64,000 nucleotides of DNA from Solirubrobacteraceae bacterium (GTDB lineage: Bacteria > Actinomycetota > Thermoleophilia > Solirubrobacterales > Solirubrobacteraceae): the NCBI GenBank assembly GCA_029263125.1, contig JAJCYD010000043.1, positions 1 through 64,000 of the forward strand, read 5' to 3'. Positions within the stretch are counted from its first letter, which is position 1. Every line of letters starts with the position of its first letter. The translations under genes and the position numbers were made by a program. The notes under the pieces were generated by a model that saw only the letters and a list, made by a program, of their open reading frames with translations, did not search any database and was not told where the DNA came from. Positions 43,180 through 46,704 of the stretch are shown piece by piece.

Positions 43180-46100
43180 GTGACCGCCCCCTCCTGCGCG
43201 CATCTGCACGTCCATTCGGAGTACTCGCTGCTGGACGGCGCCTGCAAGGTGGAGGCGCTCGCCAAGCGCGCCGCGGACTTCGGCCAGCCCGCCCTAGGCC
43301 TAACCGATCACGGCGTCATGAACGGCGCCGTCGAGCACTATCAGGCGGCCCGCAAGCACGGCGTCAAGCCGATCATGGGCTGTGAGATCTACTTCGCCGA
43401 CGACCACACCGCGCGCGGCCGTCACGAGCACAACCACCTCACGCTGCTGGCCGCGACCAACGACGGCTACCGCAACCTCGTCAAGCTCTGCAGTGCCGGC
43501 TTCTTGAAGGGGCTCAACCGCGGCAAGCCGACGGTCGATCTGGGGCTGCTGGACCGCTACAGCGACGGGATCATCGCCCTGACCGGCTGCCTGGCGTCGC
43601 GCTTCTGCCAGCGCCTCGTCGACGACCGCGACGACGAGGCGCGTGCGCACGTCGACGACCTGATCGAGGTCTTCGGCGCCGAGGACGTCTACCTGGAGGT
43701 CCAGCGCAACGGCCTCGCGCCGCAGGACAAGGCCAACGAGAAGATCGTGCGGATCGCGCACGAGCTCGGCCGGCCGATCGTCGGGACCGCCGACGTGCAC
43801 TACCTGCGCAAGGAGGACTACCACCACCACACGGCGCTGCTGTGCGTGCAGACGAAGTCCACCCTGCAGTCGCCGAAGATGACCTTCGACACCAACGAGT
43901 TCTTCCTGAAGTCCAGCGAGGAGATGGCGCAGTCCTTCTCGCAGTGGCCCGAGGCGCTGGCGTCGACGGTCGAGATCGCCGAGCGCTGCGACGTGCAGAT
44001 CGAGCTCGGCCAGCAGCTGATTCCGCACTACCCGACGCCGGACGCCAGCAGCGAGCAGGACTACCTGCTGGCGCGCGTGCACGAGGGCCTGGCGCTGCGT
44101 TACGGCGATCCCGCGCCGGCAGAGGCGCTCGAGCGCGTGGAGATGGAGCTCGGCGTCATCAACCGCATGGGCTTCGACGCCTATTTCCTGATCGTCTGGG
44201 ACTTCATCCGCTACGCCAAGGAGCACGGCATCGCCGTCGGCCCGGGCCGCGGGTCGGCCGCCGGGTCGATCGTCGCGTACTGCCTGCAGATCACCGACGT
44301 GGACCCACTGCGCTACGACCTGCTCTTCGAGCGCTTCCTGAACCCCGAGCGCGTGTCGATGCCCGACATCGACATCGACTTCTCCGTGCGCGGGCGCGAG
44401 CAGGTCATGCGCTACGTCGTCGAGAAGTACGGCCGCGAGTCGGTCGCGCAGATCGTGACCTTCGGCAAGATGTTCCCGCGCGCGGCGACGCGCGACGCGG
44501 CGCGCGTGCTCGAGCACGACTACGGCACCGGGGACAAGCTCGCCAAGCTCATCCCCGACCCGATCATGGGGCGCTCGCCGTCCTTCGAGGATTGCCTGAA
44601 GCCGGGCGAGGCCCTGCGCCTGGCCTACGACTCCGACCCGGTCGCCAAGCAGATCGTCGATGTCGCCCAGGGCTTGGAGGGGATCGTGCGCAACTCCTCG
44701 ATCCACGCGGCCGCGGTCGTCATCGCCGAGGGGCCACTGACGGACATCGTGCCGCTGCAGCTCGCCGACTCAAACCAGGTCGACGCGGACGGCAACAAGA
44801 TCTTCAAGATCGTCACGCAGTTCTCGATGAAGCCCGTCGAGCAGCTCGGCCTGCTGAAGATGGACTTCCTCGGCCTGCGCAACCTCGATGTCATCGAGGA
44901 CGCGCTGGACATCATCGAGCGCTCGACCGGCACACGGCCGGACATGGCGGGGCTGCCGCTCGACGACGAGCGCACCTACGAGATGCTCGCAAGCGGCGAC
45001 TCGATCGGCGTCTTTCAGTTCGAGTCCGAGGGCATGCAGAAGGCGCTGCGCAACGTGCGCCCGTCGGAGTTCGACGACCTCGTCGCGCTCAACGCGCTGT
45101 ACCGGCCGGGCGCGATGGACTCGATCCCGATCTACGCGCGCGGCAAGCGCAACCCCGAGTCGGTGGAGTTCCCCGACGAGCGGCTGCGGGCGATCACCGA
45201 GTCGACGAAGGGCGTGATCCTCTACCAGGAGCAGTCGATGCAGATCGCCAAGACGCTCGCGGGCTTCTCGGGTGCCAAGGCCGACGACCTGCGCAAGGCG
45301 ATCGGCAAGAAGAACCGCGAGGCGATGGCCAAGCTCGAGCCTGAGTTCCGCGAGGGCTGCCGCGCGTCGGGAACTCACGACCAGGTGATCGAGCACCTGT
45401 GGGCAACGAACGTCAAGGCCGCTGACTACTCGTTTAACAAGTCTCACGCCGCATGTTATGCACTCATTGCATATCGCACTGCATGGTTAAAGGCCAACTA
45501 CCCCGCGGAGTACATGGCGGCGCTGATCTCGAGCGTCATGTCGACAAAGGACAAGGTCCCGTTCTTCGCCACGCAGGCCGAGCAGATGGGCATCGAGATC
45601 CTGCCGCCCGACGTCAACCTCTCAGACCACGACTTCGTCGTCTCAGACGGCAACATCCGCTTTGGACTAGATGCCGTCAAGGGCGTCGGCTACGCTGCCG
45701 TCGAAGCGATCAAGACCGCGCGCCAGGAGGGTGGGCCGTTCGAAACGCTGTGGGACTTCTGTACCCGGGTCGACGCGCGCACGGTGAACAAGAAGGCGAT
45801 CGAGGCGCTGATCAAGTGCGGCGCCTTCGGCTCCACCGGCGACTCGCGCATGGGCATGCTGAGCGTGCTCGAGCAGGCGCAGGGTGCGGGCCAGAAGGCC
45901 CAGCAGGATCTCGAGATCGGGCAGGGCTCGATCTTCGACTCGCTGGACTTCGGCGGCGAGTCCGATGCCAACGGCGCCGCTGCGGCGTTCGCCACGCAGC
46001 ACCCGCCGATCCCGCCCGAGGAGTTCGACCAGCCCGAGCTGCTGGCGATCGAGAAGGAGTCGATCGGCCTGTTCATCTCCGCGCACCCGCTCAAGCAGGT

Positions 46101-46704
46101 CCGCGAGGCGCTGCGCGAAGCGGTCGACTGCCCGCTGGCCGATCTCGCCGCGCGCAAGGACAAGGACTGGGTCTCCGCCGGAGGGATCATCACGGCTGCC
46201 AAGAAGATCCGCACGCGCAACGGCGAGCACATGATGTTCGCGACGCTTGACGACCTCGAGGGCTCCGTCGAGATCCTCGTGTTCGGCAAGGCGCTGGCGG
46301 AGTACGAGGGCGCGCTGGGCGTCGACTCGGTCGTCGTCGTTCGAGGGCGCGTCGACCACAAGGACGCCGACAAGACGTGCCTCGTCGTGCAGTCCGCCGA
46401 GCCGTTCGTCCCGACCGACGAGGAGGTGGAGCGCGCCAAGGCCGCGGCGGCCACCCGCCTGGTCGGGCCACTGCCCCTGCACGTGCGCCTGGACGCGGCT
46501 TGCCTGCCCGCATCGGTCATCGATGACATCAAGCACCTGCTGGCCAACTTTCCGGGCGAGTCGGAGGTCGTGCTCGAGGTGCAGATGAGCGCGGGCGACC
46601 CGCGCACGCTCAAGCTCGGCCCCGGCTACAAGGTCGCGCCCACGCCGACGCTGCGGGCCGAACTTGAGCATGTGCTGGGTCCGGCAGCGCTCGTTGCCGG
46701 CTGA
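43180..46704 (+). CDS. dnaE: DNA polymerase III alpha subunit (DnaE)
   Basis: The 1174-residue replicative polymerase has the N-terminal PHP domain (HLHVHSEYSLLDG at 8-20, LGLTDHGVM). The catalytic palm has GPGRGSAAGSIVAYC and the Asp triad PDIDIDF (Asp396, 398, 400). The finger region has KKNREAMAKLEPEFREG, and helix-hairpin-helix and OB segments follow (GGIITAAKKIRTRNGEHMM). It is a DnaE1-type enzyme. No intein is present. A 24-codon stretch from 45421 has strikingly AT-ending codons (see the separate entry). The GTG start is set by the PHP motif and a -10 box 8 nt upstream. Confidence 0.97.
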   Translation: MTAPSCAHLHVHSEYSLLDGACKVEALAKRAADFGQPALGLTDHGVMNGAVEHYQAARKHGVKPIMGCEIYFADDHTARGRHEHNHLTLLAATNDGYRNLVKLCSAGFLKGLNRGKPTVDLGLLDRYSDGIIALTGCLASRFCQRLVDDRDDEARAHVDDLIEVFGAEDVYLEVQRNGLAPQDKANEKIVRIAHELGRPIVGTADVHYLRKEDYHHHTALLCVQTKSTLQSPKMTFDTNEFFLKSSEEMAQSFSQWPEALASTVEIAERCDVQIELGQQLIPHYPTPDASSEQDYLLARVHEGLALRYGDPAPAEALERVEMELGVINRMGFDAYFLIVWDFIRYAKEHGIAVGPGRGSAAGSIVAYCLQITDVDPLRYDLLFERFLNPERVSMPDIDIDFSVRGREQVMRYVVEKYGRESVAQIVTFGKMFPRAATRDAARVLEHDYGTGDKLAKLIPDPIMGRSPSFEDCLKPGEALRLAYDSDPVAKQIVDVAQGLEGIVRNSSIHAAAVVIAEGPLTDIVPLQLADSNQVDADGNKIFKIVTQFSMKPVEQLGLLKMDFLGLRNLDVIEDALDIIERSTGTRPDMAGLPLDDERTYEMLASGDSIGVFQFESEGMQKALRNVRPSEFDDLVALNALYRPGAMDSIPIYARGKRNPESVEFPDERLRAITESTKGVILYQEQSMQIAKTLAGFSGAKADDLRKAIGKKNREAMAKLEPEFREGCRASGTHDQVIEHLWATNVKAADYSFNKSHAACYALIAYRTAWLKANYPAEYMAALISSVMSTKDKVPFFATQAEQMGIEILPPDVNLSDHDFVVSDGNIRFGLDAVKGVGYAAVEAIKTARQEGGPFETLWDFCTRVDARTVNKKAIEALIKCGAFGSTGDSRMGMLSVLEQAQGAGQKAQQDLEIGQGSIFDSLDFGGESDANGAAAAFATQHPPIPPEEFDQPELLAIEKESIGLFISAHPLKQVREALREAVDCPLADLAARKDKDWVSAGGIITAAKKIRTRNGEHMMFATLDDLEGSVEILVFGKALAEYEGALGVDSVVVVRGRVDHKDADKTCLVVQSAEPFVPTDEEVERAKAAAATRLVGPLPLHVRLDAACLPASVIDDIKHLLANFPGESEVVLEVQMSAGDPRTLKLGPGYKVAPTPTLRAELEHVLGPAALVAG
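45421..45493 (+). other. Codon-usage anomaly inside dnaE at the intein insertion site
   Basis: Codons for residues 748-771 (ADYSFNKSHAACYALIAY and on to TAWLK) end in A or T in 13 of 24 cases, including TTA, TGT, ATT and two TAT. Flanking dnaE codons almost never do. The protein sequence itself is the conserved DnaE motif. The junction Tyr750/Ser751 matches the site where cyanobacterial split DnaE inteins are inserted (before CFNKSH). No intein or endonuclease sequence is left. Confidence 0.7.

What the first reader, a model, noticed from the sequence alone, without database searches (positions are those of the whole stretch)
45421..45493. AT-ending codon island in dnaE starts exactly at the conserved DnaE intein site
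Seen: 13 of 24 codons from GCT (45421) to TTA (45489) end in A or T, including TTA, ATT, TGT and two TAT, while the flanks are almost all G/C-ending. The protein is normal. Known: cyanobacterial split DnaE inteins are inserted just before the CFNKSH motif, which aligns with SFNKSH here. Inference: the island may be a co-conversion tract left by an intein that invaded and was later lost, or a repair patch from a distant donor. An alternative is selection for a local DNA or RNA signal.
Basis: partly seen in the sequence, partly recalled or inferred. Interest (0 to 1): 0.65.

Follow-up and report, generated by a model that had tools for sequence, protein, structure and literature searches.

The report
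Probable intein scar in dnaE
A 70-base stretch of a bacterial DNA polymerase gene is written in codons foreign to the rest of the gene, and it surrounds the exact place where relatives carry a selfish intein, so it is probably the scar of an intein that came and went.

Summary
In dnaE1 (43180-46704, +), 13 of 24 codons from 45421 to 45492 end in A/T, against 5.6% elsewhere. This is the strongest such cluster in the gene, in a 450-kb sample of the genome, and among 148 dnaE1 genes of the order. Close relatives lack it (0-3/24).

Five of 232 genomes of the order carry a 332-335 aa intein in dnaE1, all at one site, FNK^SHAACY (45441^45442), inside the island and four codons downstream of the recalled cyanobacterial split-intein position. 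It is the only intein site seen in this gene across the order.

One carrier has a similar AT-ending island around its intein. The site is also the part of the conserved core richest in lineage-specific AT-codon clusters, even without the window and all carriers.

No donor was found, and the other carriers' downstream flanks do not match the island. Best explanation: a short DNA-conversion tract left at a homing site when an intein was gained and lost, or when an endonuclease cut was repaired from foreign DNA. This rests on position and composition, not on an identified donor. Confidence about 0.5.

The parts
43180..46704 (+). dnaE1, DNA polymerase III alpha subunit, intact, no intein
   Evidence: NCBIfam NF004226 1282 bits, above its cut-off; ORF of 1174 aa
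45421..45492 (+). AT-ending codon island, codons 748-771, 13/24 A/T-ending
45441..45442 (+). Intein junction of relatives (FNK^SHAACY, codons 754/755), empty here
45442..45489 (+). Densest part of the island, 3' of the junction (TCT to TTA)
   Evidence: 11 of 17 codons downstream against 3 of 15 upstream
45367..45420 (+). Possible upstream extension of the foreign tract: amino acids unlike the congeners (H733, D734, Q735, H739, V745, A747) and GGA, ACT, GCA codons
   Evidence: boundary uncertain

Best explanation
The island is a short DNA-conversion tract at an intein homing site. A DnaE intein that circulates in this bacterial order inserts, or makes its endonuclease cut, between codons 754 and 755. 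Repair of the cut, or the later exact removal of the intein by recombination with an intein-free gene, copied about 70 bp (perhaps up to about 120 bp) of dnaE from a donor with less GC-rich codons. The protein stayed normal because the motif is nearly invariant, so only codon choice shows the foreign patch. Shown here: the island, its lineage specificity, the intein in relatives at that junction, and further AT-codon clusters at that junction. Inferred: block replacement, the foreign donor, and the intein's former presence.
For: (1) The island spans 45441^45442, the only large in-frame insertion site in the dnaE1 core across the order, and every insertion there is this intein; a 24-codon window spans a given codon by chance about 2% of the time (my arithmetic). 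(2) Congeners lack the island, and at least 10 of its codons differ from all four of them; neighbouring codons change little, which suits one block event. (3) The carrier G058 (L114) has the same kind of island around its intein: 8/24, p = 4e-6, second strongest within the core. (4) In scans of 148 genes, 5 of the 17 gene maxima below p = 5e-4 lie at this junction. With the window and all carriers left out, the junction region still has the highest tail sum in the core: 6.1, 6.9 and 6.3 for windows of 16, 24 and 32 codons, against at most 4.2, 3.9 and 5.8 more than two window lengths away. (5) The order-wide mean at the site is only 1.10-1.17 times expectation, so there is no general codon preference there. 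(6) Intein identities (64-73%) roughly follow extein identities (71-79%), as expected of an old resident with repeated losses. (7) Precedent: plant cox1 introns leave mainly 3' tracts of silent differences, which can outlast the intron (PMC3192709).
Against: No donor: the best DNA match to the island is 83%, with nothing close in phages, plasmids or viral contigs. The downstream flanks of carriers G023, G109, G228 and G189 are ordinary, about 0-2 of 17 codons. The AT-independent test flags only the window and G058 at this junction, among 48 genes with an anomaly somewhere. The island (54% A/T-ending) is more AT-rich than any sampled intein (6-23%) or dnaE1 of the order (at most 35%). The own genome holds no such intein.
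Confidence: 0.5

Rival explanations
1. A short patch of foreign dnaE was recombined into this place for reasons unrelated to any intein, for example by transformation and homeologous recombination anchored in the highly conserved motif.
For: Block-like, lineage-specific patch. Conserved motifs offer anchoring homology. No intein or intein donor in this lineage. Other genes have synonymous anomalies elsewhere in dnaE1.
Against: The patch falls on the one intein junction of the gene, about a 2% coincidence by my arithmetic, and the same junction is the core's hot spot for AT-codon clusters even without the window and the carriers.
Confidence: 0.25
2. The island is a homing-resistant allele: the lineage was selected to change the endonuclease's recognition sequence silently, step by step or by adopting a recoded copy, so that the intein can no longer cut and enter.
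For: Changes are silent and centred on or just beside the junction. The intein is present in the order and absent here. Conexibacter arvalis has one ordinary and one recoded dnaE copy.
Against: At least 13 changes, far more than escape should need. GCA at 758 and TTA at 770 are unmatched in the order, and CTG to TTA needs two steps. Neither the endonuclease nor its target has been characterised.
Confidence: 0.14
3. Selection for a local DNA or RNA signal or for translation speed produced the AT-ending codons.
For: Two further genes with higher AT3 (L125, L242) also have 8/17 A/T-ending codons just downstream. The order-wide mean is slightly raised, 1.10-1.17 times.
Against: Congeners lack the island. 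RNA folding z = -0.69, no promoter-like site, no RNA family at threshold.
Confidence: 0.07
4. Assembly artefact: a piece of another organism's dnaE was joined into this contig.
For: The genome is a 53-contig draft with 2% estimated contamination.
Against: The frame and protein motif are intact across a 70-bp patch inside a 200-kb contig, and the surrounding gene is that of the genus.
Confidence: 0.04

Closest known systems
Co-conversion tracts of the homing group I intron in plant mitochondrial cox1 (PMC3192709)
   Same: Short run of third-position changes beside a homing site, mainly on the 3' side, able to persist where the intron is absent
   Different: There the tract matches intron-bearing donors; here no donor is known, and the element is an intein in a bacterial chromosome
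Cyanobacterial split DnaE inteins (recalled, not tested)
   Same: Same gene and same conserved motif (SFNKSH / CFNKSH)
   Different: The recalled site is four codons upstream, before the C/S of CFN; the intein here is one continuous chain and inserts before SHAACY
Intein-flank co-conversion in haloarchaeal mcm (PMC10643990)
   Same: Flanking extein positions replaced during intein invasion
   Different: There the intein is present and the evidence is an amino-acid change; here the intein is absent and the tract is silent

Membership tests
Co-conversion tract (homing scar) | Lies directly at a homing-element insertion site | tested here: met
   Island 45421-45492 spans 45441^45442, the intein junction of five relatives
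Co-conversion tract (homing scar) | Lineage-specific run of mostly silent changes with sharp boundaries | tested here: met
   sharp at the 3' end, less sharp at the 5' end
Co-conversion tract (homing scar) | Sequence matches an element-bearing donor | tested here: not met
   No sampled carrier has the island codons; unsampled donors remain possible, so 'co-conversion tract' is used for how it would work, not as proven membership
Co-conversion tract (homing scar) | Carriers themselves show converted flanks | tested here: inconclusive
   G058 yes, p = 4e-6; G023, G109, G228, G189 little or none
Intein (the element in relatives) | In-frame insertion with intein splicing domain, Cys at the start, His-Asn at the end followed by Ser | tested here: met
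   PF14890 3e-10, TIGR01445 8.8e-10, junction sequences
Intein (the element in relatives) | Active homing endonuclease | not testable with these tools
   The middle region matches no Pfam nuclease; nuclease-like motif noted by eye only

The most novel reading that the evidence does not exclude
Synonymous codon islands at intein sites are an evolved immunity: host lineages repeatedly acquire silently recoded versions of an invariant protein motif that the homing endonuclease cannot cut, so the islands mark past invasions of essential genes.
Probability: 0.14. Interest if true: 0.75.

Novelty: new variant of a known kind. Interest (0 to 1): 0.55.

Why it matters
Whether inteins are often lost from essential genes is hard to see, because exact loss leaves an intact protein. 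A silent codon scar at the insertion site would make past invasions readable in intein-free genomes and could be scanned for at every known intein site. It would also show that selfish elements shape codon usage in the most conserved parts of replication genes.

Tried and rejected
Conserved codon preference at the motif: rejected, order-wide ratio 1.10-1.17. RNA structure, promoter, Rfam: nothing. Phage, plasmid or viral donor: none close. Intein on phages or plasmids, or in 396 sampled genomes of the phylum: none at the limits used (one search has no positive control in its sample, since the five carriers were not drawn). Other inteins in dnaE1: none; two further insertions of 32 and 43 aa lie in the variable C-terminal part. 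A first ORF-based genome background was polluted by spurious frames and was replaced, which still contains some.

Full report
What is there. The gene at 43180-46704 (+) is dnaE1, the replicative DNA polymerase III alpha subunit, intact and without an intein. Its codons almost always end in G or C. Codons 748-771 break this: GCT gac tac tcg TTT aac aag TCT cac gcc GCA TGT TAT GCA ctc ATT GCA TAT cgc ACT GCA tgg TTA aag, 13 of 24 ending in A/T, against 5.6% elsewhere. With a model that allows for each gene's own level and for amino acid, p = 2.9e-10. In 452,763 bases of the same genome no other cluster is as strong, and several of the next ones lie in doubtful reading frames.

It is new in this lineage. 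Four congeners (L004, L005, L006, L008) have 3, 1, 3 and 0 of 24. Among codons with the same amino acid, identity to the congeners is 35-50% at codons 750-779, against mostly 75-90% over the rest of the stretch examined. GCA at codon 758 and TTA at codon 770 occur in none of about 147 relatives. Just upstream, residues H733, D734, Q735, H739, V745 and A747 differ from the four congeners, so the foreign tract may begin near 45367; that boundary is uncertain.

An intein sits exactly there in relatives. A protein search over relatives showed the match split in G023 and G058. The insertion in G023 is a 332-residue intein (Pfam PF14890, TIGR01445). Five of 232 genomes of the order have it: G023, G058, G109, G228 and G189, in five different genera. 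The junction is codon 754/755, FNK^SHAACY, window 45441^45442, and it is the only large insertion in the dnaE1 core. The cyanobacterial split-intein site, from memory, is four codons upstream. The window's genome has no such intein. Named relatives such as Conexibacter arvalis and Solirubrobacter place the window in or near Solirubrobacterales; the window itself is unnamed.

Does the site attract such islands? The scan of 148 distinct dnaE1 genes gave 17 whose best cluster is below p = 5e-4. Five of those lie at the junction: the window, the carrier G058 (8/24), the second dnaE copy of C. arvalis (8/24, while its ordinary copy has 0/24), G013 (a congener of carrier G189) and G009. About 0.4 would be expected (my arithmetic). 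Leaving out the window and all carriers, the junction region still has the highest tail sum in codons 60-880 for window sizes 16, 24 and 32; at size 32 the margin is small and the count of genes (3) is equalled elsewhere. Averaged over the order the site is only 1.10-1.17 times expectation, so this is sporadic and not a shared preference. An independent test that ignores AT content and uses unusual synonymous differences from nearest relatives flags the window (5e-7) and G058 (2e-4) at the junction, but only these two of 48 genes with an anomaly below 1e-3. The recurrence is therefore suggestive, not proven, and the number of independent cases is small.

Donor. The closest DNA to the island is 83% identical, from G010 of the same family. 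Phage, plasmid and viral collections give nothing close. The carriers' downstream flanks do not carry the window's codons. Sampled inteins have 6-23% A/T-ending codons and the most AT-rich dnaE1 of the order 35%, against 54% in the island, so the donor is an unsampled gene or the small number of codons exaggerates its composition.

Mechanism. Homing endonucleases cut intein-free alleles, and repair copies flanking donor DNA along with the element; exact loss also needs recombination with an intein-free copy, which again replaces flanks (established knowledge of homing). Either step leaves a silent patch at the junction. Plant cox1 introns show both the mainly 3' tract and its persistence without the intron (PMC3192709); here the island is also heavier on the 3' side (11/17 against 3/15). 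Intein identities (64-73%) rise and fall roughly with extein identities (71-79%) in four carriers, which fits long residence with repeated losses better than recent spread, though four sequences are few. That an intein was ever present in this lineage remains inference.

Rivals. A short recombination unrelated to inteins is the main rival, because no donor ties the patch to a carrier. Selection for resistance to the endonuclease is possible and would be the more novel reading, but the number of changes is larger than escape should need. A conserved DNA or RNA signal is unlikely: congeners lack the island, and no promoter, RNA fold or RNA family was found. An assembly error is unlikely but was not excluded with reads.

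Verdict.

Noticed in passing
L142 1-1838 and L143 2141-3967 (Conexibacter arvalis, G027 contigs C13 and C4): Two dnaE1 copies in one genome, identical near the contig ends and diverged further on; only the ectopic copy has an AT-ending island (8/24) at the intein junction, the other has 0/24.
   Followed up: partly
window 45661-45672: Second mini-island: four successive A/T-ending codons TTT GGA CTA GAT in the conserved motif IRFGLDAVKG.
   Followed up: no
L113, L114, L148, L149, L151, L289: A DnaE1 intein family of 332-335 aa, found only in this order in the genomes searched, whose middle region matches no Pfam nuclease; motifs such as CDFYF...WEMDGMDR look nuclease-like (PD-(D/E)XK type) by eye.
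   Followed up: partly
L027 (G015), dnaE1 codons 766-789: Run of 10/21 unusual synonymous codons starting 12 codons downstream of the intein junction, not AT-rich.
   Followed up: no
L031, L240, L261, L264, L267, L129, L131, dnaE1 codons 821-824: In-frame insertions of 7-14 residues at one place in several genera of the order.
   Followed up: no
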